Shown piece after piece: positions 19,389 through 44,048 of a stretch of DNA of 45,881 bases. How positions within the stretch are numbered: position 1 is the stretch's first letter; every line of letters begins with the position of its first letter. Both the position numbers and the translations under genes were made by a program. The notes beneath the pieces were generated by a model. It was given only the letters and a program-made list of their open reading frames with translations, searched no databases and had not been told where the DNA came from. The stretch is from Bacteroidota bacterium (lineage in GTDB: Bacteria; Bacteroidota; Ignavibacteria; Ignavibacteriales; Melioribacteraceae), in NCBI GenBank assembly GCA_018818165.1, contig JAHISP010000024.1, positions 1 to 45,881 on the forward strand. The letters run 5' to 3'.

Positions 19389-19390
19389 TC

Positions 19391-19677: not shown

Positions 19678-19699
19678 TTTCAACTAAGGGAAAATTGTA

Positions 19700-21174: not shown

Positions 21175-21216
21175 ATGACTAAAAATCTAATCCGTGCAAA
21201 TCAATCTAATCCGCCC

Positions 21217-21288: not shown

Positions 21289-21433
21289 AATCCGCGTGCT
21301 ATCGCTTTTTGTCTTTTCCATCATTCCACTATTCCATTTTCCATAATTCCCTTTGCGTCTTTCCGCCCTTGCGGTTTTCCTTTTCTCACTTCTCACTTCT
21401 CACTTTTTCTTTTCCATCAGCGTGCTATTAACC

Positions 21434-28600: not shown

Positions 28601-31600
28601 TGGTTATGAAGGTAATGGTGAGCTAGCTGTAAATGCTCTACTTTTTTATCCATCTGGTGTAACAATAGATGATGACGGAAATATTATTATTACAGAGGGT
28701 GCAAATGTTAGTAGTCTTTGTATTATTAGAAAAGTAGATACTGAAGGTATTATTTCAACAATAGCTGGAAAGGCTTATGTTAATGATTTCAGTGGAGAAG
28801 AAACATTTGCTTTAGATGCTAAGTTAGATGACCCTAGAGGAATTGCAGTTGGTCCTGATGGAGTAATCTATTTTGCTGATTATTATAATTACAGAATTAG
28901 AAAGCTATATCCTTCTATGCCTCAATTTTCGGCTAATGATATTAGTATAGCCTCAGAGAATGGAAGTGAAGTATATAATTTTTCTTCTTATGGTAAACAT
29001 CTAAATACAATGGATGCAATAACTAGCAAAATTAAATATAACTTTAGCTACAATTCTGATGGTTTGTTAACATCTATAACAGATATTGATAGTTTAGTTA
29101 CACATATTGAACGAAATGCTTCTGGCAATCCTACAGCTATAATTGCTCCATTTGGGCAGAGAACTGAAATAACATTGGATGGAAATGGTTATGTTGGTGA
29201 AATTAAGAATCCAAATAATGAAATTGTAAGTCTCGAATATATGTCAGATGGATTATTAACAAAAATGACCAACCCAAGATTATTCGATTATATCTTTACA
29301 TATGATTCGTTAGGACTTTTAATTAAAGATGAAAATCCGGCGAATGGGTTTACTGAGCTTGAACGTACTGAAACTAACAATGGATACCAAGTTTTAACAA
29401 GAACTGCTGAGGGTAGGGAAAAAACTTATGGTGTGGAATGGATGTCGGAAGGTGGTATAAGATTTAATAATACTGGTGAAGATAGTTTGAGTATAATTGT
29501 AGAACAAAAACCTAATGGAACCTCAACAAAATATAGTCCTGATGGAACTATAACTATTACCAAACTTGAACCCGACCCTCGTTTTGGCTTGGAAGTTCCA
29601 TTAAAAAATTATGAAACTACTCTCCCTTCTGGTTTGAAAATGAAGTTTGAGCATAAAAGAATTATTACACAAATGATTGCCAATGAAGTTACTGGAATTG
29701 CCGATACAGCAATAGTTAATGGTAAAAAATGGATATCCGATTACAATGGTAACTTAAACATGTTTACCTCAACTTCACCTGAAGGAAGGCAATCATTCAG
29801 TTACACCGATTCACTTGGTAGAGTATTCCAAAGTTCTGCGCTTGGTATTGCTCCAGTAAATTATTTGTATAACAGCAATGGTTTCTTAACTTCTGTTTCG
29901 CAAGATGGAAAAACATCTACATTTAACTATAATACAAACGGTAGGTTACAATCAACCACCGACCCAATGAACAGAACAGAAAGCTACGAATACGATGCAG
30001 TAGGCAGAGTGGTGAAACAAACACTATACAATAACAAAGAGATTCTTTATAGCTATGATGCAAATGGTAACCTTACATCACTAACTCCACCTGGGAGACC
30101 AGCACATATATTCGATTACACTGCTGTTGATTTAACCAATAACTATGTACCACCAATAGTACCCGATAGTGCTGGCGTGACAAAATATATTTACAATTTG
30201 GATAAACAATTAGTAAGTACAATACTACCCGATAGTACTTCAATAAATATAACATACGATACAACCGACTGTGGTTGTAGCAGCAACGGCAAACCAACAG
30301 AAATAAACTTTAGCCGTGGCACTCTGTTTATAAACTATGATACATTAGGCAGATTAGAAAGCACCATAACTCCCGAAAGCAACTTGCTTACATATAGCTA
30401 CGATGGAAGTCTTCCACTATCTATTGCATGGAGTGGAGCTGTAAATGGAACAGTAGGCGTAATCTACAACAACGACTTTAATGTAGTCTCGCAATCGATA
30501 AATGCCAGCAACACAGTAAACTTCAGCTACGATAATGACGGATTACTAACCTCTGCTGGATTGATGAATTACAACTACAACATGCAAAACGGATTACTTT
30601 TAAGTAGCAGTCTCGGCAATTACACAAGCAGCTATGCTTACGATAATACCGGTAATATTGACACTTTTACCACTAAATATAACACAACTGATTTGTTCAA
30701 GACCGTTTATGAAAAAGACTCCCTCAGTAGAATAACAAAAATAACAGAAACCATTGAAGGCGTATCTACTGAAACAGAATACAGATACAACCAAATAGGT
30801 TATTTGGTAGAAGTAAAACAAAATGGAATTGTAAGCACTCAATACAGTTACGACAACAACGGTAACCGCTTAATGACAATAAAAAACCCAATGACAACAA
30901 ATGACACGCTCCTTGCCGTTTACGACAACCAAGACCGAATGCTAACCAATGGAACAGAAAGTTACATTTACGGCAAACGAGGTAATCTACAAGCAAAAGT
31001 AAGTGGAACAGATACCACAAAATATTATTACGATAATCTTGGAAACCTAAACTCAGTAATATTGGCAGATGGAACAATAATTGATTATGTTATTGACGGA
31101 CAAAACAGACGGATTGCTAAATTGTTAAACGGTCAAATTACAAAAAAATGGTTATACCAAGACCAACTAAACCCAGTAGCAGAACTGGATAGTGCAAACA
31201 ATATTGTAGCAAGATATGTTTATGGAACCAAAGCAAACGTACCAGAATACATTGTTAAAGCAGATACAACATATAAAATTATAAGCGACCATCTCGGTAG
31301 TGTGCGAATGTTAGTAAATACAAGTAACGGAAATATTGCCCAACAAATGGATTACGATGCTTGGGGAAACCAAGTTTCAAATCTTGGGTCTAATATCTCA
31401 AGTCTCTCTTTCGCTGGTGGTTTATATGATGAACATACTGGTTTAGTTAGATTTGGAGCAAGAGACTATGATGCTACAGTTGGAAGATGGACGAGTAAAG
31501 ATCCAATTCTTTTTGCTGGTGGGCAGAGTAATTTATATGAATATTGTCTGAATGATCCAATAAACATATTAGACCCAAATGGACTTCAGGTAATAGGTAT

Positions 31601-32009
31601 TTATTCAAAATCAAGTGGTAAAATCCATGCATTGGATTTGAATACTTTTGATGTAGTAAATATAAATGCTGAATCAGGAGGTAAACCTTTTGGCGATCCT
31701 ATACCAAATGGTTTGTATGAAATATTGGATCAAGCTCAAAATCCTGAATCATTCAGACTTGATGCTGCTGATAGATATCCAAGAAACGATGTACATGAAA
31801 GCTCTGGAAGAAACAGATTTAGACTACATGAACCTGGAAATACGATTGGTTGTATTGCAGCAACAAATACAACAGGCTGGCAATCTTTGAAAAATTTGTT
31901 GAACAATACGAAAACTACTCAAGTACCTGATAATGCAAAACCGTGGTGGAAGTTTTGGGGTGGTCAAGAGTATATAAAACGATATGGTTTCTTTTATGTG
32001 AGAGATTAA
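22644..32009 (+). CDS. Giant exported Rhs/YD-repeat polymorphic toxin-like protein
   Basis: A 3121-residue exported protein. In order: Sec signal peptide (about 1-24); six FN3-like repeats of about 97 residues (27-608, YYWRV and SWSNVWSF hallmarks); seven bacterial Ig-like repeats of about 84 residues (610-1200, NGDTVAVDG motifs); a carboxypeptidase-regulatory-like domain (about 1250-1320); an NHL-type propeller (about 1783-2083, DGEIYFADD); YD repeats (about 2129-2875); an Rhs core (ISDHLGSVR through GLVRFGARDYD and DPNGLQ, about 2880-2982); and a variable tip (2983-3121). NHL followed by YD repeats recalls teneurins. The YD shell usually encloses the tip. There is no PAAR or T9SS domain, so the export route after Sec is unclear. 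The next gene is a membrane protein 10 bp away, the likely immunity partner. Confidence 0.93.
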   Translation: MTAIKKTWLSIILSLLFSTNIIGQNSPILNLPSNGATNIPITNTFYWSEVTGASSYVLQISSTSGFYWNQIDLSNLTTTHQQVNGLYMGSLYYWRVGAVVSGITYWSTTGSFTTGSPGGEGGNPGPNHIAPSSGSTVPQTNQSLTWDPVSGATYHVQISTTSNFSYNQVEQSGLTIAEIIPTGLYLNITYYWRVNATVNGETTDWTVPWSFTTSSTPPSIPAAPILATPSNNSSGTGTTPTLTWNASSGADSYGLEVSSDEQFANIITNQTGITTTSYALSGLSNQTTYYWRVNATNNSGSSSWSNVFNFNTSTSTSTATTLVSPNNGATGVPIVNTFYWNEVQGATYTLQISGTSNFSINNIDVSGITDTNYQVTNLGYATFYYWRVGANDGNGVVWSNSRSLTTGSSGGIGGNPGPSLLVPSNASSNIPTNQTFAWEEVAGATYQIQISASSYFGANQVDQSGVTVPSYPASGLYLGTSYFWRVNATTVEGTTDWSEVYSFTTSSTSPTSPVSPILASPVNSATDVSTSTQLVWYQSSEADSYTIEVATDASFNNTIINQAGITTTSYNTSGLSQGQIYYWRVEAVSTSGNSGWSNVWSFTTTSTSITPVLTVTTPEDNALTNVSPVTVTGSVDDPANSVKINGVNVTVNGDGSFSGTVTLTEGENTVLITAYNEINDSVSVFRLINYDSTLPVITIISPDNNLITSSSSLNITGSVNDASDVTLTVNGDTTTVDGSGNFTYNASLLEGTNSIIVIATDEAGNSNTETRTLLVDTVEPIIVITNPVDSSVVGSLSTTLTGNVNDTAISLLTINGDTVAVDGVGNFTFNVSLLEGENNINIIATDKAGNQTNKMHLIVADTTPALLVVNTPTDSLTTNQTTIAVTGNVTDATDMIVTVNGDTVIVDGTGNYSTNVVLSEGQNVIMIIVSDEGGNTKTVTRNVLLDIIAPSITITSPADSSITSLTTATLIGNVTGTDINVVTVNGDTVIVDINGDFSAFINLVEGKNNISIVATDTVGNETNLAHVIYLDSTPPVLTITNPADSTVTNQATIILTGTVDGSNDVVIVNGDTVAVDQNGDFSKELTLAEAENIINITATDEVGNETSITRLITLSYMPPVLTIDEPQNNFRTTENFVTVTGEVSESAAIVTINGDTVAVTSEGLFTALTEINYEVNIIEIIAVNAAGSDKITKTVIKEEIIIIPDNPIDIAPPIDSTVVTTLGKSVEFLYTGSNPIQTDLVVDTLSELRIAVLRGNVVDNNGSYLSGVKVSIKNHNEFGKTYSRDDGWFDMVVNGGGEFVVNFSKNGYLTAQRLIETYWRDYSILDPIILVALDTNVTHVDFTDSVQVAHGSVETDTDGSRQATMLFKEGTSVILELPDGSTQSLSSVNVRATEYTVGEGGPSKMPADLPPASQYTYCVELTADEAINVGATKVSFDKPISYFVENFLNFPIGTVVPVGYYDREKSEWVAADNGRVVKIVDIVNGFAEIDITGDDIAESSIILQPFGILDLERKELAEKYSVGQSLWFINISHFTPYDFNWGLSRYATSINVSPPNNKQIDNGCTIQGSIIGIHNQTLGESIGIVGTPYSLNYTTEAVDGYKKNRYLKIPVIGESVPVALGSVSVTVRIAGTEHIEKFDSLYPNLTYNFIWDGKDGYGRDVKGSFPVLTSKSYKFTGSTNDNNSEYGVLIDTSTAPLSSSPKAFSRRGWWWSDWTMNSEPRIATRDNTVNQFTNSFLTAPLDRSIKALPNWGINVHHSYDVNKGTLYFGDGSKRSVRGELLIKTVAGNGNHGDLIYCYGGMGGNAQDAFFSMPEGVKVDSDGNVYFSVYSCNKIFKVNKEGIISPFIHQNRVEDFDIGVDGSFYIIGNNTIRRVRPDGTSETIATPPTGGGSGIAVSPEGDIYYFNYVTRKMYRIANDGTSTIIAGNGSYTSSGDGVSALEAGINVRGIDVGKDGEIYFADDMGQAIRKIDKDGYIRTIAGTLNNYGYEGNGELAVNALLFYPSGVTIDDDGNIIITEGANVSSLCIIRKVDTEGIISTIAGKAYVNDFSGEETFALDAKLDDPRGIAVGPDGVIYFADYYNYRIRKLYPSMPQFSANDISIASENGSEVYNFSSYGKHLNTMDAITSKIKYNFSYNSDGLLTSITDIDSLVTHIERNASGNPTAIIAPFGQRTEITLDGNGYVGEIKNPNNEIVSLEYMSDGLLTKMTNPRLFDYIFTYDSLGLLIKDENPANGFTELERTETNNGYQVLTRTAEGREKTYGVEWMSEGGIRFNNTGEDSLSIIVEQKPNGTSTKYSPDGTITITKLEPDPRFGLEVPLKNYETTLPSGLKMKFEHKRIITQMIANEVTGIADTAIVNGKKWISDYNGNLNMFTSTSPEGRQSFSYTDSLGRVFQSSALGIAPVNYLYNSNGFLTSVSQDGKTSTFNYNTNGRLQSTTDPMNRTESYEYDAVGRVVKQTLYNNKEILYSYDANGNLTSLTPPGRPAHIFDYTAVDLTNNYVPPIVPDSAGVTKYIYNLDKQLVSTILPDSTSINITYDTTDCGCSSNGKPTEINFSRGTLFINYDTLGRLESTITPESNLLTYSYDGSLPLSIAWSGAVNGTVGVIYNNDFNVVSQSINASNTVNFSYDNDGLLTSAGLMNYNYNMQNGLLLSSSLGNYTSSYAYDNTGNIDTFTTKYNTTDLFKTVYEKDSLSRITKITETIEGVSTETEYRYNQIGYLVEVKQNGIVSTQYSYDNNGNRLMTIKNPMTTNDTLLAVYDNQDRMLTNGTESYIYGKRGNLQAKVSGTDTTKYYYDNLGNLNSVILADGTIIDYVIDGQNRRIAKLLNGQITKKWLYQDQLNPVAELDSANNIVARYVYGTKANVPEYIVKADTTYKIISDHLGSVRMLVNTSNGNIAQQMDYDAWGNQVSNLGSNISSLSFAGGLYDEHTGLVRFGARDYDATVGRWTSKDPILFAGGQSNLYEYCLNDPINILDPNGLQVIGIYSKSSGKIHALDLNTFDVVNINAESGGKPFGDPIPNGLYEILDQAQNPESFRLDAADRYPRNDVHESSGRNRFRLHEPGNTIGCIAATNTTGWQSLKNLLNNTKTTQVPDNAKPWWKFWGGQEYIKRYGFFYVRD
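31590..32009 (+). other. Variable C-terminal tip: Tlde1/L,D-transpeptidase-like domain
   Basis: The last 139 residues of the Rhs protein follow the Tlde1 (DUF2778)/YkuD-like scheme: an opening SKSSGKIHAL strand pair, DPIPNGLYEI (usual PIPxGxYxI), RNRFRLHEPGN and TIGCIAAT. This gives candidate catalytic His3062 and Cys3070. Relatives cut or exchange peptidoglycan stem peptides in the periplasm. The spacing between His and Cys is shorter than in classic YkuD, so activity needs testing. Confidence 0.65.
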
Positions 32010-32018: not shown

Positions 32019-32735
32019 ATGAGAGTACAATATTTTTTGTGTAGTATAATAATAAACCTTTTTTTATTAGGAATTTTAGTTTTTACTAGGTTAGTAAGTT
32101 ATGATCTAGATTTTAATCAGATATTGAACGATTTGACATTTGGAAATTTCATCTTCTTTCTATATCTGTTGCTAATTCTTTGCTCACTAGCCTGGCAGTA
32201 TTTAACAATTCATTCAGAAATTCAATTTACGATATTAAATATTATTTTGCTTTTACTTAGCTCTTTTTTATTTGTGGTTATCATAGCTTCGTTAATTAGT
32301 TTTATTTTTAGAGGAGGTATAATTGAATTTGATAATTACTTAATTTATTATAGTGCTAGAAAAATTAAGTTTCTCATTCCACTTTTTATTATTGTAACAA
32401 CATTCTTCTTTTGGCGAAAGTTCTTTCGATTATCAAAAATTAGTAACTTTAAGAAAATCTATAATCGATCAATATTAATTGGAGTAATGTCCTTTATTAC
32501 AGCACTAATGTTTTATTTTGTAAAATTTATTTTTCTAAAAGAAACTAGTTCAAATCTATTTCAAGGACTATTAGTTCTTGTTGGATTTATAATGCCATCT
32601 TATTTTTTTGTTATGAGTTCTATGGCATTACTAAAAGCAAAATTATCGAAGCAAGAGTTTAAGATCAAAAAGATATTTATAATTTTTAGTTTATTAGGCT
32701 CTATTGGATTTACATTAATTACTTCTTTCCTTTAG
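32019..32735 (+). CDS. Multi-pass membrane protein, candidate immunity to the active Rhs tip
   Basis: A 238-residue hydrophobic protein with about six to seven membrane segments (e.g. FFLYLLLILCSLAWQYL, FTILNIILLLLSSFLFVVII, FLIPLFIIVTTFFFW). It has no recognised family motif. It starts 10 bp after the Rhs stop with AAGGAAA in front of the ATG, so it is co-transcribed. A membrane partner fits a tip predicted to act on the cell wall. Immunity is inferred from position only; a transport or anchoring role is possible. Confidence 0.7.
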   Translation: MRVQYFLCSIIINLFLLGILVFTRLVSYDLDFNQILNDLTFGNFIFFLYLLLILCSLAWQYLTIHSEIQFTILNIILLLLSSFLFVVIIASLISFIFRGGIIEFDNYLIYYSARKIKFLIPLFIIVTTFFFWRKFFRLSKISNFKKIYNRSILIGVMSFITALMFYFVKFIFLKETSSNLFQGLLVLVGFIMPSYFFVMSSMALLKAKLSKQEFKIKKIFIIFSLLGSIGFTLITSFL

Positions 32736-32828
32736 TTAAAGTGTGAGTTAATTGAAAGTATAGTTTCATGGCTGTCATGGTTAACAGTGGGAGCCTTTTC
32801 TTTTTTATACAAGTAAATAGTTTTTCAA

Positions 32829-33909
32829 TAGTTACGACAACCAAGACCGAATGCTAACCAATGGAACAGAAAGTTACATTTACGGCAAATGAGGCAATCT
32901 ACAAGCAAAAGTAAGTGGAACAGATACCACAAAATATTATTACGATAATCTTGGAAACCTAAACTCAGTAATATTGGCAGATGGAACAATAATTGATTAT
33001 GTTATTGACGGACAAAACAGAAGAATAGCAAAAAAAGTGAATGGCTCAATTGTTAATAAATAGTTATACCAAGACCAACTAAACCCAGTAGCAGAACTGG
33101 ATAGTGCAAACAATATTGTTGCAAGATACGTTTATGGAACCAAAGCAAACGTACCAGAATACATTATTAAAAGTGATACTACTTATAAAGTAATAAGCGA
33201 CCATTTGGGTTCAGTTAGATTATTAGTAAATGTTTCAAACGGAAATATTGCTCAACGAATAGACTACGATGCGTGGGGCAACCAAGTCGCAAATCTTGGG
33301 TCTAATATCACAAGTCTCTCTTTCGCCGGTGGTTTAACAGATGAACATACTGGACTTGTCCGCTTTGGAGCAAGGGATTATGATCCGATAGAAGGAAGAT
33401 GGACAAGCAAAGATCCAATATTGTTTGCTGGAGGGCAAAGTAATCTTTATGTATATGTTTATAATAATCCAATCAATATTTATGATATTAGTGGATTACA
33501 AGGTAATGTTTGTTCAAAAAACTCAACTGAAGATTATAAAGATGCCCTAAGAAGAATGGAAGCTTTATTAAATCAATTGATTGAAAACAACAAAAATTAT
33601 GAGCAAATAAAAAAGAACGAACAAACTGTTGCTCCATACTTATGGCAACCACCAACGTTTTGGGAAGGTCTTGATCAAGCAGTTCCTATTATGCTTGATG
33701 GAGGAGCAATAGCAGCACTTTATGCAGGTCAACCAATTTTGGCGGGGGGATTTTCTTTTACATCTACTGCATGGACAGCAAAAAATGAAGGTTTTAGTGG
33801 ATCAACAGGAGTTGGTGTTGTGACTATGATTGCTGGGACATATGGACCATTATCTTATCCAATGGCGATTGTGCAAATAGTTTATGATGTATATAGTACA
33901 AAAAAATGA
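32829..33909 (+). pseudogene. Displaced Rhs cassette 1: YD/core remnant plus tip
   Basis: Begins abruptly at TTACGACAACCAAGACCG, matching the intact gene from about 30920 onward nearly base for base. Two in-frame stops (TGA 32890-32892 where the intact gene has CGA; TAG 33061-33063 where it has TGG) prevent expression from upstream. From 33205 the frame is open: ISDHLGSVR core, then a different tip of about 137 residues (KDALRRMEALLNQL, YLWQPPTFWEGLDQAVPIM, then Gly-rich hydrophobic stretches). The tip resembles a membrane-inserting domain. It has no ATG of its own and is probably a donor for tip exchange. Confidence 0.85.
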
Positions 33910-33955
33910 CATTTTTAGTTTTCTGAGTATTTTTATAAAATAAAGGAATAAATAA

Positions 33956-34174
33956 ATGATATTGGTTTTCAGTGTTATTTTGATTTTTATAGGTGCAATA
34001 TTAATGTTTTTTAATGAAAAGATAATAGAACTGTTTAATGAAGATGGATATTTCACCCATAAACAAAATAAATACAGAAAAATTGTAGCGGGTTTAGGAT
34101 TAGTCATTCTTGGTATTTGGGGAATACTCGAATATTTTGGTATCACAGCTTTTATGGGGCAATATGTGAAATAA
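33956..34174 (+). CDS. Two-helix membrane protein, partner of cassette 1
   Basis: A 72-residue protein with two membrane helices (ILVFSVILIFIGAILMFF; IVAGLGLVILGIWGILEYF) separated by a charged loop with a YFTHKQNKYRK motif. AAAGGA lies before the ATG. It is homologous to the partner of cassette 2, and the tips of cassettes 1 and 2 are homologous too, so tip and partner have been inherited as a pair. This is the main argument for an immunity role. Confidence 0.7.
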   Translation: MILVFSVILIFIGAILMFFNEKIIELFNEDGYFTHKQNKYRKIVAGLGLVILGIWGILEYFGITAFMGQYVK

Positions 34175-34260
34175 CAGATTTGTTGCTTTTGCTACGTTTA
34201 GCAAACTTGAAAGTGTTTTTAATAATAGCTCAGAAAATAGTCTTCAACTAGTTTTGTGTT

Positions 34261-34848
34261 ATAATCTCAAGTCTCTCCTTTGCTGGTGGTTTATATGATG
34301 AACATACTGGCTTAGTAAGATTTGGGGCGAGAGATTACAATCCAACATTAGGACGTTGGATAAACAAAGACCCAATTGGTTTTGGTGGCGGTGTTAGTAA
34401 TTTGTACGAGTATTGTGTTAATGATCCAGTTAATTTTGTTGATTTATCAGGTCTTCAGTGTACCATAACTTCTGAGGAATACAAGAAAGATCTTCAGAAA
34501 CTTACTTCATTATATGAACAATTAATAGAGAACACTACTGATTATGCTCAACGAGAAAAAAATGGATTAGCAGTAGAGCCATATTTATGGCATCCACCAA
34601 CTTATTGGGAAGGTCTTGATCAATCGGTTCCTATTATGCTTGATGGAGGAGCAGTAGTTGCAACTTATTTAGGTCAAGTACACGTGGCTGGTGGTCTTGG
34701 CGTAGCATCAACTTTATGGACTCTGAAAAATGATGGTTTAGGTGTCTCAGTTGGTGTTAGTGCAACAACAACTGTTATTGGTGCAGTCTCACCACCTTAT
34801 ATTGCAATACCTGTTGCTCTTGGTCAATTTATTTATGATTTATTTTAA
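34261..34848 (+). pseudogene. Displaced Rhs cassette 2: core fragment plus tip
   Basis: The Rhs core starts mid-motif (ISSLSFAGGLYDEHTGLVRF), 4 codons after an in-frame stop at 34249-34251, with no ATG or ribosome site. The core ends DLSGLQ and is followed by a 131-residue tip paralogous to cassette 1 (YLWHPPTYWEGLDQSVPIMLDGGA; Gly/Val-rich end). It is silent as it stands. The upstream 60 bp repeats before cassette 3. Confidence 0.85.
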
Positions 34849-34888
34849 TAAATAATTGTTTTTTTTTTTATAAATTTGAAGTTAAACG

Positions 34889-35080
34889 ATGGAATTATTT
34901 TTTGGTATTGTTACAATTATTATTGGTATTATGTTGATAGCATTTAATGAAGAATTAATAAAGCTATTAGGTACAGATAAATATTATGACCATAAAAAAG
35001 ATAAGTACAGAAAAATCATTGTAGGAATTGGAACTATTATTTTAGGTATATGGGTATTATTAGATTATTTCATTTCTTAA
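34889..35080 (+). CDS. Two-helix membrane protein, partner of cassette 2
   Basis: A 63-residue paralogue of the protein at 33956: helix 1 (FFGIVTIIIGIMLIAF), loop YYDHKKDKYRKI, helix 2 (GIGTIILGIWVLLDYF). No clear Shine-Dalgarno, so expression is uncertain. Its retention with intact reading frame next to a silent tip suggests that the cassette is kept as a unit. Confidence 0.65.
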   Translation: MELFFGIVTIIIGIMLIAFNEELIKLLGTDKYYDHKKDKYRKIIVGIGTIILGIWVLLDYFIS

Positions 35081-35169
35081 ACTGAAATATTGCATTAAAA
35101 TTAATAGTCTTAATTGAAAGTGTTTTAATAATAGCTCAGAAAATAAACTACAATGAGTTTTGTGTTATA

Positions 35170-35790
35170 ATCTCAAATCTTGGGTCTAATATCTCAAGTC
35201 TCTCTTTCGCTGGTGGTTTATATGATGAACATACTGGTCTTGTCCGCTTTGGAGCAAGAGATTTCAACCCAACAATTGGTCGTTGGATTAGCAAAGACCC
35301 AATTGGCTTTAATGGTGGTGTTAGTAATTTGTACGAATATTGTGTAGATGACCCAGTTAATTATGTTGACCCAAGTGGTTTGCAGGGGCTATCAACCCCA
35401 GTTTCAAGACATTTTTATATTTCGGAAATGTCTGCGGCACAACGAGCGAGAATGATGGAGAATTATGGGAAATATACAACAGGAGTACTTAGCGGTGTTA
35501 GTGTTGCGTTAGTTGTAGTGGGAACTCCGTTTACAATTAGTGCAGCAGGTGTTATTGGTGGTATTTCTGTTGGTATATCTTTTATAAATGGGGAGTATGG
35601 GGATGTAGCTTTAGGAGTTGCATTGTTAGGAATAGGTGCTCAGATAGTGAATCCATCAGCTAGAATAGCTTATGCTTTGGCGCAATTCGGATACGAATTG
35701 TTGCCTGATGGAAGAGTTATTAAGATTGAATATCAAGATCCTATGTCTGTTCAAGATAATACAGCAGTTGCTAAAAAAACTTGTCCTTAA
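35170..35790 (+). pseudogene. Displaced Rhs cassette 3: core fragment plus tip
   Basis: Joins the Rhs core at SNLGSNISSLSFAGG. The frame is open back to 35086 but has no ATG. After DPSGLQ comes a tip of about 134 residues with a long Gly/Ala/Val-rich hydrophobic stretch (TTGVLSGVSVALVVVGTPF, GVIGGISVGISF, GVALLGIGAQI), suggestive of a pore-forming or membrane-inserting domain, and a C-terminal tail AKKTCP. It is silent as it stands. Confidence 0.85.
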
Positions 35791-35810
35791 TATTTATGGA
35801 GATTAAAACT

Positions 35811-36020
35811 ATGAATGAAGCTATTATTTTAGGAATTATATCATTTATAATAGGTTTGTTCCTATCATTAAATTGGGAGAAAATAATTGAATCACAAGGG
35901 CCAATTAAAGATGGTGATTACCCATTTGAAACTAGAAAGGCACAACTTATTGGAGTAGGTATTGGATTAATAATTGCTGGTATTGTTGGTATAATTAAAG
36001 GTCTATTTTTCTTTAAATAG
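35811..36020 (+). CDS. Small membrane protein, partner of cassette 3
   Basis: A 69-residue protein from the ATG at 35811 (MNEAIILGIISF), with GGAG 9 nt before it. Longer frames from 35781 or 35796 are less likely. Two membrane helices (AIILGIISFIIGLFLSL; GVGIGLIIAGIVGIIKGLFF) flank a polar loop. It shares the two-helix layout with the other partners but little sequence. Candidate immunity protein by position. Confidence 0.65.
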   Translation: MNEAIILGIISFIIGLFLSLNWEKIIESQGPIKDGDYPFETRKAQLIGVGIGLIIAGIVGIIKGLFFFK

Positions 36021-36062
36021 TAAATAGTTTTAATATAAAAAGCAGATAAAGAGTATGCTTGT

Positions 36063-36776
36063 TTAATAATTGTACGCTGTGTTTTCGGTACAAAAATTAA
36101 CATACCAGAAAACATAAATAAAAATGCCTTCCCCGACTCTTTTTGCGGGGGCACAACATATAAAGTAATAAGCGGCCATTTGGGTTCAGTTAGATTATTA
36201 GTAAATGTTTCAAACGGAAATATTACACAACGAATAGATTACGATGCGTGGGGCAACCAAGTATCAAATCTTGGGTCTAGTATCTCAAGTCTCTCCTTCG
36301 CTGGTTGTTTATATGATGAACATACTGGTCTTGTCCGCTTTGGAGCAAGAGATTTCAACCCAACAATAGGACGTTGGACAAACAAAGACCCAATAGGTTT
36401 TGGTGGAGGTGTTAGTAATTTGTACGAGTACTGTATAAATGACCCAGTTAATTTTGTTGACCCAAGTGGTTTGCAATGGATTTTTTCTATAGCTCGTTAT
36501 ATTGGAGGTTTTATTGGTAGAGGAGGTGGCTTCATTTCTGGTTCTATGCCAATGAAAGGTGGGTTTGGTGAGCAAGGATACGATTTGGATTTTGATGGAA
36601 CGCCTGATGATCAAGATGAAAGAGATAATAGAAAAGACCCTTTATGGCAATGGGAACAATATGAAAAACTCCAAAAAAAGCTTGAAAATCTTGAACAAAG
36701 AGATAAACTTGAGAAAGGGATTGAACATATGAAGTTAAAAGCATTCATTGAGCTAATGGATAATCCTTGTGATTGA
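36063..36776 (+). pseudogene. Displaced Rhs cassette 4: core fragment plus tip
   Basis: A longer core remnant, readable from IVRCVFGTKINIPEN (intact gene: IVARYVYGTKANVPEY), with an in-frame GC-rich insert at about 36125-36152 containing CCCCG-N10-CGGGG. The core continues GSVRLLVN to DPSGLQ. The tip of about 98 residues is unlike the others: a Gly-rich start (YIGGFIGRGGGFISGS), an Asp-rich DLDFDGTPDDQDERD block like a calcium loop, a coiled helix, and an end of NPCD. There is no ATG upstream. Confidence 0.8.
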
Positions 36777-36793
36777 TAAATGAAGGAGTAATT

Positions 36794-36928
36794 ATGGTGG
36801 CATTAAATTGGACGGAAGTAACAATTGCGCTTATAGTTTTTATAATACTTATTCTTTTTTCAAAAAGGGTTAGAAAAATAATGCGAGAGATAATAGAAGT
36901 TATCAAAGATATTTTCTTTTGGATGTAA
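36794..36928 (+). CDS. 44-residue single-helix membrane protein, partner of cassette 4
   Basis: A very short gene with a strong AAGGAG before its ATG. It has one membrane helix (VTIALIVFIILILF) and then a basic amphipathic helix (SKRVRKIMREIIEVIKDIF). It fills the partner position directly after tip 4. It is small enough to be missed by length-filtered gene callers. Candidate immunity or regulatory peptide. Confidence 0.6.
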   Translation: MVALNWTEVTIALIVFIILILFSKRVRKIMREIIEVIKDIFFWM

Positions 36929-36930
36929 AG

Positions 36931-37579
36931 GATAGTGCAAACAATATTATTACAAGATATGTGTACGGTACACAAAAAACATAACGTCGCTTGGGGAAAC
37001 CAAGTTTCAAATCTTGGGTCTAATATCTCAAGTCTCTCTTTCGCTGGTGGTTTATATGATGAACATACTGGTCTTGTCCGCTTTGGAGCAAGGGATTACA
37101 ACCCAACAATAGGACGTTGGATAAGCAAAGATCCAATTGGATTTGATGGTGGTCAGAGCAACCTGTATTCTTATGTTGATAATAATCCAATTATTTTTGT
37201 TGATATTACTGGGCAAGGTAAATGGGGTTATCGTGGATTATATATGGGTGGTGGCTACTATTTACCATTTCATTGGACACTTGGAGGTGAAGAAGGTAAT
37301 ATACTCCTTATGCATGAACAATATTGGTTTAATGATGGAACAAGCAAAGGATATGGTGATGGGATTTGGGTGGAAGAGTTTTCTTATCAAGATGTATATA
37401 AACAATATGTGTTTTTATTTAGCAAAGAGTATAATGATAAACTTATGAGAGATGCTATGAATCTTGTACTGTGGAATCCAAAAGAGTACTTTTTAGTTGG
37501 CCATAATTGTCAAGATTGGGCATCTGCTGTTAGAGAAAAATATAGAGAGCTTGAGAAAAATGAAAAATCTTGTCCTTAA
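36931..37579 (+). pseudogene. Displaced Rhs cassette 5: core fragment plus papain-like tip
   Basis: Begins GATAGTGCAAACAATATT (intact: DSANNIVARYVYGT) but changes frame before WGNQVSNLGSN, so the join is a deletion junction. A GTG-started frame from 36935 is fortuitous. After DITGQGK the ~120-residue tip shows PFHWTLGGEEGN and later GHNCQDWASAVREKY, an order recalling permuted papain/LRAT-NlpC folds (His early, then NC). Tail KSCP. Confidence 0.8.
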
Positions 37580-37593
37580 GAATGGAAATATTT

Positions 37594-38463
37594 ATGAATA
37601 TTTTTAAAGTATTATCAGTATCAGTATTATTAGTACTTTTGGTAGCTTGTACAGAGCATGAAGAACTCTCTTTCCAACTGGATGGGAAAATTCTAACTGC
37701 TATTAGTGACATATATCAATATGACCTAAAATTAAAGAAAGAGACTCTATTTTATAAAGAGAAATCTTTGGGTAGTGGAATTATGTCCATAAGCTACTAC
37801 GATGATGAACACATTATTTATGGTACAATAACTAAGACAATAAAAAAACTGAATCTTAAAACAAAATTATCTAAAGAAATAGGATTTGGAATGAATCCAT
37901 TTTGCATTCCATCAAAGAGAATACTATATTTTTTTAATAGTAAAAATATAGATAGTGACATTACTCTTTGGAAAGCGAATTACGATTCTCTTGATAGTGC
38001 AAAAAAAATACTATCGCTTGGAAAGAGATTCGAAGGGTATTCAACGACAAAAATTGTTCAGATTTCTGATTCCACGATTGTACTGACAAATAAAGACGAA
38101 GAATTAGTTATTATCAATATTAATAACAATAAAATAAAGAAAACACCTTTTAAATACTATCATCCTATATTTTATGATGATATTTGTTCATTATTGTATT
38201 GCTACAGTACAAAAAGTGATTGGACAACATATAAAATAGATATGTTAAAAGAAAAGGTTTCAGAAATTGATTTGCATATAGAAGGTAATGCTCTGTATGT
38301 AAAAAAATATCATGCAGCAATTTTTGCAAAAGCAAGGATATCTTTAAAGTATGGAGAAACTGGCGATTTAATGATTAATTTTTTGCACAATGATAATAGC
38401 TATGAAATACTCGAAAGAACAAGATTTAATCAAGGTATTTATTTTGCAGAGACAATATTTTAG
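37594..38463 (+). CDS. Propeller-like lipoprotein, partner of cassette 5
   Basis: An approximately 289-residue lipoprotein (lipobox LVAC) directly after tip 5. The ATG at 37594 starts the signal; 37582 is an alternative. The mature part has repeated strand-turn units (MSISYYDDEHIIYG, TTKIVQISDSTIVLTN, SLLYCYSTKSDWTTYKID) like a beta-propeller, though I cannot name the family. A lipid-anchored periplasmic partner, unlike the membrane partners of the other tips, suggests that tip 5 acts in the periplasm. Confidence 0.75.
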   Translation: MNIFKVLSVSVLLVLLVACTEHEELSFQLDGKILTAISDIYQYDLKLKKETLFYKEKSLGSGIMSISYYDDEHIIYGTITKTIKKLNLKTKLSKEIGFGMNPFCIPSKRILYFFNSKNIDSDITLWKANYDSLDSAKKILSLGKRFEGYSTTKIVQISDSTIVLTNKDEELVIININNNKIKKTPFKYYHPIFYDDICSLLYCYSTKSDWTTYKIDMLKEKVSEIDLHIEGNALYVKKYHAAIFAKARISLKYGETGDLMINFLHNDNSYEILERTRFNQGIYFAETIF

Positions 38464-38605: not shown

Positions 38606-39103
38606 TTAATTAATATTAACTTCTTTAGAAATCTTATACTCTGTTAGTAAAACGGTTTTAGTATCTATTTTTAAAATTTTAATGTATTTATATTCTTCAC
38701 CCTCCCTGAGAAATAGTGTCTTGGAATTTGATTCATCATTAAAAATTATCATTTTCCCAGAGTTTGCTATTATCACACCTTTAATAGAATAATTTATTGT
38801 TTCTACGGGTGGCAGTGGCTTAATTTTATTCTTTTTTGCTGCAATTTTCTTTTCAGGTTTTATGATATCAGAAAAAGTGAAAGGATCTTGTTCTAAAGTA
38901 ATATATCCTATTTCTTCAGGTTCATCTAATTTTTTATTAACTGCAACTGGATGTAAAGGAAGTGATTCGTTGGCAATATCTATTTGAATATCATCGTTGT
39001 CAAGAAAATGTGTAGTTATTCTAAACAAAATAATACCCCATATTACTATAACAGTAGTAATTAAGAGAATAAAAGATATCCTTTTTTTATTGGGCATTTT
39101 CAT
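38606..39103 (-). CDS. GspC/PilP-like inner-membrane secretion component
   Basis: A 165-residue protein with one N-terminal membrane helix (FILLITTVIVIWGIILF), a Pro/Lys-rich linker, and a small beta domain (INYSIKGVIIANSGKMIIFN, KTLFLREGEEYKYIKI) of the GspC HR/PilP type that links the inner-membrane platform to the secretin. It is the last gene of the operon and overlaps the preceding gene by ATGA. Assignment rests on topology, position and the beta-domain pattern. Confidence 0.7.
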   Translation of the reverse strand: MKMPNKKRISFILLITTVIVIWGIILFRITTHFLDNDDIQIDIANESLPLHPVAVNKKLDEPEEIGYITLEQDPFTFSDIIKPEKKIAAKKNKIKPLPPVETINYSIKGVIIANSGKMIIFNDESNSKTLFLREGEEYKYIKILKIDTKTVLLTEYKISKEVNIN

Positions 39104-39630
39104 AAATTTAAATAGACGTTAATTTTTGTGAGAACTTTTAATTTTTGTTGCGTAATAGTTATTGGGTTTATACTAATTTCAGTTACTAATATTACTTTTT
39201 CTGAGCTTTCTAAAAATCTAATAAAATTATATAACTCTTCATAATTAGAATTAAACTCCAATTCAACGGGTAGCAGCCAGAGGTTTTCGTTGCTTTTTAG
39301 TTTACTAGGTTTTATTGAAGTAATACTAATGTTTGATTTTTTTGCAATGTTATTAAGATAACGCATAGTTGTTGAAATGTTTTTATTTTCCTCATAATCA
39401 GAAACTATCTGGTTTATCTGTGATTTAAGCTTTTTGTTTGTCTCCGTAAGCTTATATAAATTAGCATCAATTGCGGTTACTTTATCTAGTTTATTAGTGT
39501 CATTTATCCAGTTAATTGTTAATGAACTTAAATCCCAAATCCGTGGTAAAATCTCCCCAAATAATACAACTATTGTAAAAACAATAATTATTACATTAAT
39601 ATTTTTCCATTTCTTATTGTTAATTTTCAT
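39100..39630 (-). CDS. PilO/GspM-like inner-membrane protein
   Basis: An approximately 176-residue bitopic protein: a membrane helix near the N-terminus (VIIIVFTIVVLFGEIL), a coiled coil (LYKLTETNKKLKSQINQIV), and a ferredoxin-like fold with the PilO phrase YEELYNFIRFLESSEKVILV. I use the ATG at 39630; the frame to 39642 starts with TTG. It overlaps the end of the PilM-PilN gene. It forms the alignment subcomplex with PilN and PilP. Confidence 0.78.
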   Translation of the reverse strand: MKINNKKWKNINVIIIVFTIVVLFGEILPRIWDLSSLTINWINDTNKLDKVTAIDANLYKLTETNKKLKSQINQIVSDYEENKNISTTMRYLNNIAKKSNISITSIKPSKLKSNENLWLLPVELEFNSNYEELYNFIRFLESSEKVILVTEISINPITITQQKLKVLTKINVYLNL

Positions 39631-41152
39631 AATAGTTTGCAAGTATTGAAAAATTTATCATTGTTTTTCTTGGGAGTATAATATTTGACCTAAATTTCGA
39701 TTTTTCAACTAAGTTGGCATATTCAAGAGTAATGTTATTAAAATTATTTAATATTTCAATTCTATTGATAATATCAGTTACATCTTTTTGTGAATATGAA
39801 AGACCTTGGAGGTTTAGTTGCAATCCATTATTTGACTCAGTTATTAAAAAATTTGTTAGACATCCATTGTTGCCAATACCTTCAATTATTGAATATAGAA
39901 TTTTCGAAAAAACAATTCGTTCGCCTTTTAATTTAGTAAGTATAGAAAGATTTTTTGTCAAATTGTTATTGGCGTCATTAAGATTTTCTACCATTTTTGC
40001 TTTAACATCAATTTCTATCAAATTATTTTCATTGTTTTGAATTTGAGTGTTTAATACACCTTCTACAAAATAAATTGAAAGCAACAAAAAAACTAGTATT
40101 GAACCCAAAGTTAAAATAAGCTTCAAACTTGTCTTCTTTTCTATGTATTCTCTATTCACTAATTCAACTTCTACTGGTAAAAGGTTTATTGATTTATCGT
40201 TACCTGTCAAAAGTTTATTTATCGCAATTATTGAACTCAAATGCGAAGCTTCAATATCAAATGGCTCTTTATTTATTAACTCTGTTAAAAATATTGATCT
40301 CAGATGAGGAGCTATTTCTTGCTCAAGTATATTTTGTGAAGAAAAAAATATCTGTAGCTCTTCGTTAGCTGCTGGTAAAAACGTATTTAAGTTTTGCTTT
40401 ATTTCATTTAGACAGAAAATAATTGTATCAATATCATGAATATTCTGGTAGCCGTTATTTATTTCAAAATCAGTTTTAGTTTTATTTAAAAATAACTCAC
40501 TATAAATTAAAGAAGTCTTACTATTTGAAAACGAATAGATAATTTTATCGAAAACTACATTTAAAAATAAAATGTTCTTCTCTTTAGCAAAATTAAGTGT
40601 GTGGATTGATAAAGGAAAAGTAGAAATGCTAATTATTCTTAAGCCATTAATTTGGCAGGCTTTTGTAATATTTTCTATAAAGATTTTTCTAGCTATAGTT
40701 ATACAATAGTATTCATTATCCTCATCTTCAGAGTACTTTTCATAGGAAAACAAAAAATCATCTATTTGGCGTCCTTCAGGTAAAAACTTATCTGTGTTTT
40801 CTAAAAACCATAACTCCTTATCTTCTGTATCTATATCTATTTTTATTGTATTAAATCTAAATTCATTAATTCCAAGTATTATTAATGCTTCTTCCAGTTT
40901 GAATTTATCAGATAACTTTTTCAGACTATTTGTAATAAAAGAAAGATCATTGTCATATTCAATTATTTCCGAATATATGATTTTATCAGTAGTATTAAGT
41001 TTTTCTTTAGTTATTTGATAAAAGGGCTCCTTGATTTCAATATATGTACAATGAGCGTATTTTTTATGAATATCCAGAACTACAAAATTCTTAACCCCAG
41101 AAATTCTGTAAAAACTTATTCTTTCTAATATGTTTGATAAATTATTTAGCAT
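39620..41152 (-). CDS. PilM-PilN fusion (GspL-like)
   Basis: A 510-residue protein. Residues about 20-310 form an actin-like PilM/GspL cytoplasmic domain. INLLP at 322-326 is the conserved PilN N-terminal motif that normally inserts into PilM. A membrane helix (344-366), coiled coil and ferredoxin-like PilN domain (to about 510) follow. PilM and PilN are therefore one chain, equivalent to GspL. The PilM motifs are weak, so ATP binding is uncertain. It lies downstream of the ATPase gene after a 152-bp gap. Confidence 0.78.
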   Translation of the reverse strand: MLNNLSNILERISFYRISGVKNFVVLDIHKKYAHCTYIEIKEPFYQITKEKLNTTDKIIYSEIIEYDNDLSFITNSLKKLSDKFKLEEALIILGINEFRFNTIKIDIDTEDKELWFLENTDKFLPEGRQIDDFLFSYEKYSEDEDNEYYCITIARKIFIENITKACQINGLRIISISTFPLSIHTLNFAKEKNILFLNVVFDKIIYSFSNSKTSLIYSELFLNKTKTDFEINNGYQNIHDIDTIIFCLNEIKQNLNTFLPAANEELQIFFSSQNILEQEIAPHLRSIFLTELINKEPFDIEASHLSSIIAINKLLTGNDKSINLLPVEVELVNREYIEKKTSLKLILTLGSILVFLLLSIYFVEGVLNTQIQNNENNLIEIDVKAKMVENLNDANNNLTKNLSILTKLKGERIVFSKILYSIIEGIGNNGCLTNFLITESNNGLQLNLQGLSYSQKDVTDIINRIEILNNFNNITLEYANLVEKSKFRSNIILPRKTMINFSILANYYEN

Positions 41153-41304
41153 TTAATTAAATTTTCAATAATAAATTAACTCACTCTAAAGCACTGCATT
41201 AGAACCGCGTACTTTTAATGTAATTACTATTTAGTCCTTTCCCTTATTAATTAATGTTTTCTTAACTATTTCATATTGCTTGCACAAATATAAAATATAA
41301 AATT

Positions 41305-42720
41305 TTACAACATAGTTTCTTGTAATACCTCTTCATAAGTAGTAATTCCATCCCTCACTTTTTCCATCCCTGCTTCTCTTAGTATTTTGTAGCCTTGCAT
41401 AACAGCAGCTTCTCTTATCTTGGTAACTGAAACATTATTTGAAATTAATTCAGTTATCTTTTCGTCAACTTCCAATATCTCAAATATTGAAGTTCTTCCT
41501 TTAAAACCAGTATTATTGCAAGAATTACACCCAACGTTTTTATACCCAATTTCGTGTGGTTTAAGTTTCTCTTGAGTTAAGTTTCTTTTCAATACTTTAC
41601 AACTACACAGAGTTCTAACTAATCTTTGAGCAACAATTAACTTTAATGATGCAGAAATTAGAAATGGTTCAATTCCCATGTCAATCAATCTGGTGATTGC
41701 TGAAATAGAATCGTTTGTATGTAAAGTACTAAAGACTAAATGTCCTGTAAGAGAAGCTCTAATTGCAATCTCAGCAGTTTCTCTATCTCTAATTTCACCC
41801 ACCATAATAACATTAGGATCTTGCCTAAGAAAAGAACGAAGAGCTTTGGCAAAATCAAAGCCTATATCGGATTTTACATTACATTGATTAATTCCGTCAA
41901 TATTATATTCTATTGGGTCTTCAATAGTCATTATGTTTTTTTCAATTGAGTGTATTTGTTTTAATGCGGCGTATAGGGTTGTGGTTTTTCCACTTCCTGT
42001 TGGTCCAGTTACAAGTACCATTCCATAAGGGGCAGTAATAGTTTTTGTTAATATTTTATATTGTGATTCCGAAAGTCCTAATAGTTTTAAGTCAAGTTTT
42101 AGTTGCGATTTATCCAGAATTCGTAGGACAATTTTTTCACCAAATCCAGTTGGTAAAGAAGATACCCTAATATCTATATTGTGACCTTTATAAATAAATT
42201 TAATTCTACCATCTTGCGGTCTTCTTTTCTCTGATATATCTAAATTAGCCATTATCTTTAATCTGCTGGAAATTGATAAATGTCTTTGCTTTGGTAGATT
42301 TGAAACTTCACTTAAATGTCCATCAATTCTATATCTAACTCGAAATGCAGTTTCAAGTGTTTCAAAGTGGATATCACTTGCTTTAAGATTAATTGCATTA
42401 GCGATAACTTGATTTACAAATTCAATATTCGATTGTTCTGAATCCAGACTCTCCTTTATTATCTCTTCATTATTGTTGGAATAATTTGGATAAAGTTCTT
42501 TGAGCTTTTTTAATATCACATCTGCCGGGAATTCTGATACCCTAATTTCATAACCAGTTTCAAAAGAGACATCATTTATTAATTTTAAGTCATCTTGGTT
42601 TTGTACAGCTAAATGAAGCGTGAAATTTTTAATATCAATAGGCAAAACATTATGAGCGAATGCAAATTTAGGCGATAATATTGATTTTACTTCATGAGAT
42701 ATTTGTATTGAATCTAACAT
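41305..42720 (-). CDS. gspE: Type II secretion/type IV pilus assembly ATPase
   Basis: A 471-residue hexameric motor. Walker A GPTGSGKT (239-246), Asp box (IEDPIEY), Walker B VIMVGEIRD (304-312) and His box HLVFSTLHTN (327-336) are all intact. A Cys-rich zinc insertion has TLCSCK and GCNSCNNTG. Its N-terminal MshEN/N1E domain is compact (about 1-80). The start overlaps the prepilin peptidase stop by one base (TAATG). Drives pseudopilus assembly. The family is certain; GspE versus PilB cannot be settled from this gene alone. Confidence 0.93.
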   Translation of the reverse strand: MLDSIQISHEVKSILSPKFAFAHNVLPIDIKNFTLHLAVQNQDDLKLINDVSFETGYEIRVSEFPADVILKKLKELYPNYSNNNEEIIKESLDSEQSNIEFVNQVIANAINLKASDIHFETLETAFRVRYRIDGHLSEVSNLPKQRHLSISSRLKIMANLDISEKRRPQDGRIKFIYKGHNIDIRVSSLPTGFGEKIVLRILDKSQLKLDLKLLGLSESQYKILTKTITAPYGMVLVTGPTGSGKTTTLYAALKQIHSIEKNIMTIEDPIEYNIDGINQCNVKSDIGFDFAKALRSFLRQDPNVIMVGEIRDRETAEIAIRASLTGHLVFSTLHTNDSISAITRLIDMGIEPFLISASLKLIVAQRLVRTLCSCKVLKRNLTQEKLKPHEIGYKNVGCNSCNNTGFKGRTSIFEILEVDEKITELISNNVSVTKIREAAVMQGYKILREAGMEKVRDGITTYEEVLQETML

Positions 42721-43490
42721 TAATAACCCGATATAAAATTATTGTAAGTACTAATCAGCCAGTTGTCAAATAAGTTAGTAATTAAATAACCAAAACTTAG
42801 AAACAAAGCAAATGGGATTTTCTTTTCATCTGTATAATTACTGAATAATATTTTTATTATATAAAATCCAGGAATCGCAAGAAACGCTGAAAACCATAAT
42901 CCAAATAAAGATATTGGAAATGTGAAAAGCAAAGTAAGAATTCCTATGTACTTAATGTCTCCATATCCAATGGCTTCACTTTTTTTATATTTTGAATATA
43001 ATAAATTTACAGTAACTAATATAATTATTAGAATTACTGCACCAATTATACTCAATGCAACTTGAGAATCAACAATAAATAGATTTATTATTGCTATGAT
43101 TAGTAAGCTGCTTAATAGTGGATTAGGGATTATAAGATGCGAAAAATCAATAACTGCAATTACTAGCATAATTAAAAATGACAAGTAATATAAAATAAAC
43201 TCGAAAGATAATCCATACTTTTCGAAACAAATAATACCAAGAATTCCTGCAAAAATTTCAAACAAAAAATATCTTTTTGAAATTGGTTCGTCACAATAAC
43301 TACATTTGCCCTTTAAAAATAGAAAGCTAACCAAGGGTATTAATTCATAGTATTTCAATTTTTTTTTACCACACATACAAGTTGATCTTAAAATATCAAA
43401 ATGCATACTATTTGAAAAATAAGAAATAGCATTGTTTCCAAAACTTCCCAAAGATAACCCTAAACTAAAAACAATAAGCCATTCAATCAT
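42720..43490 (-). CDS. Prepilin peptidase (PilD/GspO)
   Basis: A 256-residue polytopic aspartic protease that cleaves and N-methylates prepilins at the inner membrane. Catalytic Asp115 (AVIDFSHLIIPN) and Asp178 (GYGDIK) are present. The cytoplasmic domain has paired Cys for zinc (CMCGKKK, CSYCDEP). The start overlaps the CsgG-like gene's stop region by 8 bp, so expression is coupled. Its substrate GspG is two genes upstream. Confidence 0.92.
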   Translation of the reverse strand: MIEWLIVFSLGLSLGSFGNNAISYFSNSMHFDILRSTCMCGKKKLKYYELIPLVSFLFLKGKCSYCDEPISKRYFLFEIFAGILGIICFEKYGLSFEFILYYLSFLIMLVIAVIDFSHLIIPNPLLSSLLIIAIINLFIVDSQVALSIIGAVILIIILVTVNLLYSKYKKSEAIGYGDIKYIGILTLLFTFPISLFGLWFSAFLAIPGFYIIKILFSNYTDEKKIPFALFLSFGYLITNLFDNWLISTYNNFISGY

Positions 43491-44046: not shown

Positions 44047-44048
44047 AA

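What the first reader, a model, noticed from the sequence alone, without database searches (positions are those of the whole stretch)
32829..38463. Silent Rhs tip store: five displaced tip-plus-partner cassettes behind one expressed giant Rhs gene
Five fragments of the Rhs core follow the intact gene, each entering the core at a different point, lacking an ATG, ending after DxSGLQ/DITGQ, and carrying a different C-terminal tip plus a small downstream partner gene. Near-identical core DNA (e.g. GGTTTATATGATGAACATAC) in every copy would allow recombination to move any tip onto the expressed gene. Orphan CDI/Rhs tips are known in Proteobacteria. A five-member array with intact partners behind a Sec-exported, NHL-containing Rhs in an Ignavibacteria-like genome seems little described.
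Basis: partly seen in the sequence, partly recalled or inferred. Interest (0 to 1): 0.85.

Follow-up and report, generated by a model that had tools for sequence, protein, structure and literature searches.

The report
Spare toxin tips behind bacterial teneurin
A bacterium carries one giant teneurin-like protein gene followed by five spare gene ends, probably toxin ends with matching protector genes, and comparison with relatives suggests that such ends have been swapped by recombination near one conserved spot in the gene.

Summary
Behind the intact 3121-codon gene (22644-32009) lie five core fragments, each with an open tip and a downstream partner (to 38463). The giant protein is more than an Rhs protein: it matches the solved Bacillus teneurin-like protein (E 2.6e-226) and animal teneurins (~1e-66). 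All six copies keep the autoprotease Arg/Asp/Asp at the published spacing.

Three other genera of the family carry the same one-gene-plus-orphans layout. In one (G145) the full-length gene's tip and partner recur as an orphan. Gap-aware MaxChi tests find mosaic cores: 17 of 209 pass Bonferroni, in three of four genomes, with breaks clustered around the conserved RFGARD codons. Orphan cores differ under purifying selection (dN/dS 0.13-0.29), against simple decay. The tip-exchange reading is thus supported for the lineage. But none of the window's own orphan tips was found on a full-length gene elsewhere, and 'store' versus 'graveyard of displaced tips' stays open.

Orphan tip cassettes are a known kind (Salmonella Rhs, Neisseria MafB). 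New here: behind a teneurin-like gene in this lineage, with a recurrent exchange joint, and beside a type II secretion/type IV pilus-like cluster in three genera.

The parts
22644..32009 (+). full-length gene, 3121 aa: N-terminal signal-like segment (read by eye), fn3/Ig-like repeats, teneurin TTR, weak FN-plug, teneurin NHL, YD-shell, tip T0
   Evidence: ORF; Pfam; PDB sequence match to BiTLP 9pt5/9ifo E 2.6e-226
31359..31442 (+). core patch identical to c5 over 84 nt (c3 66, c2 29, c4 23 nt, all ending at 31441-31442); left side of the exchange joint
   Evidence: MaxChi
31461..31589 (+). autoprotease tail of the core: Arg codon at 31461, Asp 13 and 37 residues further; ends DPNGLQ
   Evidence: spacing as in BiTLP (PMC13018210 section 7)
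31590..32006 (+). tip T0, sub-threshold Tlde1 (PF10908) match
   Evidence: E 1.2e-5, 26.2 bits, cut-off 30.1
32019..32735 (+). partner I0, 238 aa, about 7 hydrophobic segments
32821..33501 (+). core fragment c1, two in-frame stops upstream of 33064
33502..33909 (+). tip T1
33956..34174 (+). partner I1, 72 aa, two hydrophobic segments
34264..34458 (+). core fragment c2
34459..34848 (+). tip T2, relative of T1
34889..35080 (+). partner I2, 63 aa, two hydrophobic segments
35128..35385 (+). core fragment c3
35386..35790 (+). tip T3, related to G145 orphan tips C and C2
35781..36020 (+). partner I3, 79 aa, two hydrophobic segments, related to the partner of G145 tip C
36045..36476 (+). core fragment c4
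36477..36776 (+). tip T4, 39% identical to an orphan tip in G047
36773..36928 (+). partner I4, 51 aa, one hydrophobic segment
36930..37216 (+). core fragment c5 with an internal core deletion
37217..37579 (+). tip T5 after DITGQ
37570..38463 (+). partner I5, 297 aa, lipobox-like motif near the N-terminus
38606..45515 (-). neighbouring type II secretion / type IV pilus-like cluster: gene in PilP position, PilO, PilM/N-like, GspE, prepilin peptidase, CsgG-like, pilin, GspF; candidate export route
   Evidence: Pfam; same gene order beside the G125 teneurin-like gene

Best explanation
The locus is a bacterial teneurin-like polymorphic toxin. Steps inferred from known families: the signal-like N-terminus goes through Sec; the neighbouring type II secretion/type IV pilus-like system carries the giant protein to the surface or outside; the YD-shell cuts off its own tip at DPNG and the tip acts in a neighbour's envelope; the partner gene protects the producer. 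Behind it sit five orphan units, each made of the last part of the core, a tip and its partner, mostly without a start codon. Homologous recombination between these cores and the full-length gene exchanges the unit [autoprotease tail + tip + partner], with the joint in or close to the RFGARD codons. Shown by comparison: the units, tip-partner linkage, mosaic cores with a recurrent joint, purifying selection on cores. Inferred: toxicity, immunity, export route, present-day switching, and silence of the orphans.
For: Teneurin identity: BiTLP E 2.6e-226; TTR 79.4 bits, NHL 99.4, YD-shell 94.5, all above cut-off. Autoprotease residues in 6 of 6 window copies. Same layout in G145 (6 orphan cores), G125 (3) and G011 (7 over three contigs). 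Recombination, gap-aware run: 17 of 209 triplet tests pass Bonferroni (G011 8, G145 6, window 3, G125 0); 48 of 52 breaks with p<0.01 lie -35 to +26 nt from the catalytic Arg codon. With longer left flanks the window gives 4 of 52, one of them (c5 like c0, then c1) breaking at -19/-18, where an 84-nt identical patch ends. In the 498-nt G145 scan the A2 break is 10 nt before the Arg codon. In G145 one tail+tip type (A, A2, A3) follows three different upstream core sequences. 9 of 12 related tip pairs also have related partners, and the A3 tip with a new C-terminal half has a new partner. dN/dS 0.13-0.29 in 8 window core pairs, 0.38 T1/T2, 0.32 I1/I2.
Against: No window orphan tip was seen on a full-length gene in any other genome searched; T0 has no relative in 163 other order genomes or 394 other phylum genomes. 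G125 passes no test in the corrected run (2 of 12 at p<0.01; one had passed). For c2 and c4 the identical patch is not beyond codon-column shuffles (p 0.03 and 0.10). Divergence between duplicate tips is old (G145 block 74% over 1617 nt), so rapid switching is not shown. dN/dS partly reflects time that cores spent on full-length genes, here or elsewhere. The MaxChi tests share sequences, so they are not independent, and one search scanned only -60 to +110 nt. All functions rest on sequence alone.
Confidence: 0.7

Rival explanations
1. Graveyard rather than store: each incoming tip displaces the previous tip and partner downstream; the array records past replacements and is rarely or never read back.
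For: No window tip was found on a full-length gene elsewhere; c1 carries in-frame stops; c5 has a deletion in its core; one G145 orphan core lacks an open tip and one G145 tip copy has no core.
Against: Mosaic joins also occur among orphans: G145 A2 (upstream like orphan C, tail like A) and window c3, c4; G011 orphans o2 and o6 have an upstream part like the full-length copy and a tail like other orphans. All five window tips and partners are open.
Confidence: 0.3
2. Immunity bank: selection keeps the partner genes to protect against relatives' tips; the tips and core pieces are passengers.
For: Partner ORFs are intact in 5 of 5 cassettes; I1/I2 dN/dS 0.32; orphan immunity proteins are described for Serratia (PMC10539506, listing and start of abstract only).
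Against: Tips are equally intact and T1/T2 dN/dS is 0.38; the autoprotease residues of all five orphan cores are kept.
Confidence: 0.2
3. Degenerating tandem duplications without function.
For: Stops in c1, deletion in c5, 5' truncation of every copy; the T1 and T2 units look like an old tandem duplicate (1178 nt, 66%).
Against: Tips belong to different families, so simple duplication of one gene end does not explain them; dN/dS far below 1 at dS 0.28-1.20; the same layout in four genera.
Confidence: 0.08
4. Independently translated small toxins using TTG/GTG/ATG starts inside the fragments.
For: c1 and c4 have an in-frame TTG, c5 a GTG and an ATG, upstream of the catalytic Arg.
Against: c2 and c3 have no ATG/GTG/TTG between the upstream stop and the catalytic Arg. 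Ribosome-site rules of this lineage were not tested.
Confidence: 0.07

Closest known systems
Bacterial teneurin-like proteins (TLP; Bacillus inaquosorum BiTLP, PMC13018210; sections 6, 7, 8, 12 and passages read)
   Same: TTR, NHL and YD-shell in the same order, autoprotease Arg and two Asp at spacing 13 and 24, variable C-terminal tip of about 15 kDa, partner gene directly downstream.
   Different: That paper lists six phyla, and the words orphan, cassette, recombin, T2SS and bacteroid occur 0 times in its text. Here five orphan tip/partner units follow, and a type II secretion/pilus-like cluster lies next door.
Enterobacterial Rhs loci with orphan rhs-CT/rhsI modules (PMC3967940, passages read)
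   Same: Full gene followed by core+tip fragments, usually without start signals, with immunity genes; recombination within the core joins an orphan tip to the main gene.
   Different: Different carrier protein and probable export route; here the identical stretches are short (23-126 nt; Salmonella 522 bp at 95%) and the cores more diverged.
Neisseria maf islands with silent mafB-CT cassettes (PMC4287609, passages read)
   Same: Cassettes without start codon, each followed by an immunity gene, behind one full-length toxin gene.
   Different: Delivery protein restricted to Neisseria according to that paper.
Polymorphic toxin loci in general (PMC3482391, passages read)
   Same: Arrays of cassettes are called typical, with a median 1:3 ratio of active toxins to cassettes; type II export is among the listed routes.
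   Different: The word Ignavibacter does not occur in the 300,000 characters held; no teneurin-linked array appeared in the passages shown.

Membership tests
Bacterial teneurin-like proteins | NHL and YD-shell domains in order on one reading frame | tested here: met
   TEN_NHL 99.4 bits (cut-off 27.1), TEN_YD-shell 94.5 (cut-off 50); BiTLP match E 2.6e-226
Bacterial teneurin-like proteins | FN-plug domain | tested here: inconclusive
   PF24329 19 bits, below its cut-off 27.8, at the expected place 1607-1673; the authors' own models were not at hand
Bacterial teneurin-like proteins | TTR domain upstream | tested here: met
   PF25020 79.4 bits, residues 1247-1330
Bacterial teneurin-like proteins | TIP insertion domain (96% of TLPs in PMC13018210) | not tested
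   no model at hand
Bacterial teneurin-like proteins | aspartyl autoprotease Arg and two Asp at spacing 13 and 24 | tested here: met
   6 of 6 window copies
Bacterial teneurin-like proteins | toxic C-terminus neutralised by the downstream gene | not testable with these tools
   layout present; toxicity and rescue need experiments
Orphan Rhs-CT/immunity modules | core fragment plus tip plus partner gene behind a full-length gene | tested here: met
   that the partners are immunity genes is inferred
Orphan Rhs-CT/immunity modules | no translation start on the fragment | tested here: inconclusive
   no upstream ATG in four of five; c5 ATG 36959, c1 and c4 TTG
Orphan Rhs-CT/immunity modules | recombination with the main gene | tested here: inconclusive
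   comparative support only: mosaic cores, shared tip and partner family on gene and orphan in G145; no switched strain seen
Tlde1 peptidoglycan enzymes (for T0) | PF10908 domain at the curated cut-off | tested here: not met
   26.2 bits against 30.1; resemblance only

The most novel reading that the evidence does not exclude
Teneurin-like gene, tip store and the adjoining type II secretion/type IV pilus-like cluster form one accessory competition system in which the conserved autoprotease motif doubles as the recombination joint, so every swap delivers a complete self-cleaving tail, tip and protector; the pilus-like apparatus might even take up DNA of killed neighbours that refills the store.
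Probability: 0.25. Interest if true: 0.75.

Novelty: new variant of a known kind. Interest (0 to 1): 0.52.

Why it matters
Bacterial teneurins are the proposed ancestors of animal neuronal receptors (PMC13018210), and how their tips change is not treated in the one bacterial study found. This locus and its relatives give a family in which tip exchange leaves readable joints, place those joints near the self-cleavage residues, and name a candidate export machine that can be tested by gene removal.

Tried and rejected
AlphaFold of T5 (mean pLDDT 39.3) and T0 (37.7) from single sequences was useless, so no fold search was made. PDB sequence searches of T0 and T5 gave only one weak match each (E 0.87 and 0.38). 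Pfam on T1-T5 gave nothing above cut-off. The weak T5 match in G010 is an outer-membrane-like ORF, not an Rhs tip. Exact stretches of 14 bases or more from the tRNA-Ala end do not recur in the window, so no island boundary was found. The genome-contig scan returned 8 loci: three are the G011 contigs, two are relatives near 50% on short contigs (Calditrichaceae MAG 53%, Competibacteraceae MAG 48%, no orphans in the DNA held), three are distant (26-28%). A single core tree was not used as proof because the segments are mosaic and about 60 codons long.

A mistake mended: the first recombination run outside the window used ungapped registers, and the G011 full-length copy is one codon shorter in the tail, so its right side was out of register (20 of 203, all four genomes; tail figures for the same reason). 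I repeated it on a codon alignment (17 of 209, three genomes, G125 dropped below the threshold) and report that. The window and G145 copies have no such gap.

Rows dropped before counts: G028, L046 and G119 cores were not in the within-genome recombination tests (one copy or partial; G119 in none); the truncated G011 core at C322:1885, the G145 core at 19523 and the core-less G145 tip copy at 14329 were left out; triplets with under 20 informative sites or fewer than 4 of either kind were skipped. The 30 genomes were chosen by me.
Full report
What is there. The window is the whole contig C73 of a 4.88 Mb, 105-contig genome. A single gene at 22644-32009 (3121 codons) is followed by a 238-codon partner and then by five units, each a fragment of the same core, a tip and a partner, ending at 38463. 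At E<=0.001 no other copy of this core family was found in the genome apart from one distant gene on contig C7 (28% identity).

What the big gene is. Pfam finds fn3/Ig-like repeats, a teneurin TTR domain, a sub-threshold FN-plug, teneurin NHL and teneurin YD-shell in that order. The 1532-residue region matches the solved Bacillus teneurin-like protein with E 2.6e-226 and vertebrate teneurins with about 1e-62 to 1e-67. The catalytic Arg, Asp and Asp reported for that protein (R2103, D2116, D2140; PMC13018210 section 7) have the same spacing here in all six copies. In the 25 copies checked from six genomes or records, the exceptions are G125_o2 (first Asp is Asn), and G011_f and L046_f (second Asp one residue closer; L046_f also Glu for the first Asp).

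Tips and partners. T0 resembles Tlde1 below the curated cut-off. T1, T2 and T3 form one loose family with G145 tips C and C2, and their two-segment membrane partners are also related; these E-values are for a set of only 25 sequences. T5 has only a weak papain-like hit. All six window partners have at least one strongly hydrophobic segment, the one of T5 also a lipobox-like motif, which suggests envelope targets; that is inference. G125 partners have none. Of 12 related tip pairs among 25 cassettes, 9 also have related partners; the other three are A-A3 and A2-A3 (A3 has a different C-terminal half and a different partner) and G011 o1-o7.

Relatives. The core end was searched in 164 genomes of the order: 19, own included, match at E<=1e-12, six of them (own, G011, G028, G119, G125, G145) with at least 55% identity in their best copy. 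The four whose DNA behind a full-length copy can be read carry orphans: own 5, G145 6, G125 3, G011 2 on the same contig plus 5 on two other short contigs. G028 ends soon after its gene and G119 is a fragment. The four other genomes of the window's genus showed no match to the core.

Recombination. In the window the identity of c0 to orphans jumps along the core: c1 is identical over 30984-31109, about 65% around 31110-31150, then high again; c5 and c3 are identical to c0 over 84 and 66 nt up to 31442 and about 50-75% after it. Codon-column shuffles reject chance for c1, c3 and c5 (p 0.0002, 0.0008, 0.0002), weakly for c2 (0.03), not for c4 (0.10). The 21-codon patch before the Arg is genome-specific: 88% identity within the window's copies against 66% to other genomes, the tail 72% against 64%. 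Triplet MaxChi tests on a codon alignment of four genomes, scan about -60 to +110 nt from the Arg codon: 209 tests, 17 pass Bonferroni (G011 8, G145 6, window 3, G125 0); 52 tests have p<0.01 and 48 of these breaks lie within -35..+26 nt. An earlier ungapped run gave 20 of 203 in four genomes but had one G011 copy out of register; its window part, which used longer flanks and is not affected, gave 4 of 52. A 498-nt scan in G145 put the A2 break 10 nt before the Arg codon. The tests overlap in sequences and are not independent.

Tip moves in a relative. G145's full-length gene carries tip A with a 69-codon partner. An orphan 5 kb downstream carries tip A2 (69% aa identity) with a related partner; its upstream core is like that of orphan C and its tail like A. 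A 1617-nt block covering core, tip, partner and the start of the next core is shared at 74% and is followed by different tips. A third orphan has the A tail and first tip half but another second half and partner. So the same tip type sits on the full-length gene and in the array of one genome, though the event is old.

Selection. Window cores differ with dN/dS 0.13-0.29 at dS 0.28-1.20 (8 pairs), T1/T2 0.38, I1/I2 0.32; in G145 tip A 0.18 and partner A 0.18 with near-saturated dS. This argues against long neutral decay, but part of that history may have been on full-length genes.

Neighbourhood. Directly beyond the array lie, on the other strand, genes for PilO, a PilM/N-like protein, GspE, a prepilin peptidase, a CsgG-like protein, a pilin and GspF. 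In G125 the same gene order, with a secretin added, runs straight into the teneurin-like gene on the same strand. In G145 GspF and a prepilin-motif protein lie just upstream, divergent. In G026 a more distant Rhs array is followed by prepilin-like genes and GspF, with the CsgG-like and PilM/N-like genes further along the contig. A PilM/N relative occurs in 4 of 6 genomes with the close core (own included) and 2 of 24 others among 30 that I picked (Fisher p 0.007; not a random sample). G028 has the gene without this neighbour in the 28 kb contig read. The cluster is a candidate export route by association only; GspE scores for type II secretion and type IV pilus models are about equal and below both cut-offs.

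Comparison with what is known. Startless tip/immunity cassettes behind a full-length gene are known in Salmonella, where recombination onto the main gene was shown (PMC3967940, passages), in Neisseria maf islands (PMC4287609, passages) and generally (PMC3482391, passages). The teneurin-like protein paper does not use the words orphan, cassette, recombin or T2SS. Searches for 'teneurin-like + orphan + immunity + bacteria', 'Ignavibacteri + Rhs + toxin', 'Ignavibacteri + polymorphic toxin' and 'type II secretion + polymorphic toxin + YD-repeat + immunity' gave 1, 2, 1 and 4 papers, none of whose titles or listed abstract starts describes this. Only open-licence PMC papers were searched.

Verdict. 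The new points are the teneurin-like carrier, the recurrent exchange joint near the self-cleavage residues, and the secretion/pilus-like neighbour.

Noticed in passing
window 17161-22426: tRNA-Ala next to a tyrosine recombinase gene (17356-18540, minus strand) and a phage replication protein O-like gene (21353-22426): the region left of the locus looks like an integrated element; no repeat of the tRNA end was found in the window.
   Followed up: partly
window 38606-45515: Type II secretion/type IV pilus-like cluster with no secretin gene between the PilM/N-like gene and GspE, where G125 has one.
   Followed up: partly
L040 (G026:C7) 114-6326: Two tips share their first part (MMPLFETIDELHDYLFPEF) and then diverge, as in G145 A/A3: joins inside tips, not only in the core.
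   Followed up: no
L066 (G047:C102), reverse complement about 5090-9176: Rhs orphan cassettes of another core type; one tip is related to window T4, next to a 222-aa membrane-protein-like partner.
   Followed up: no
window 20813-21398: Short TTCCA-rich and other small direct repeats between genes, of unknown meaning.
   Followed up: no
window 10888-12624: KaiC-like gene (NCBIfam PRK09302, 742 bits) on the same contig.
   Followed up: no
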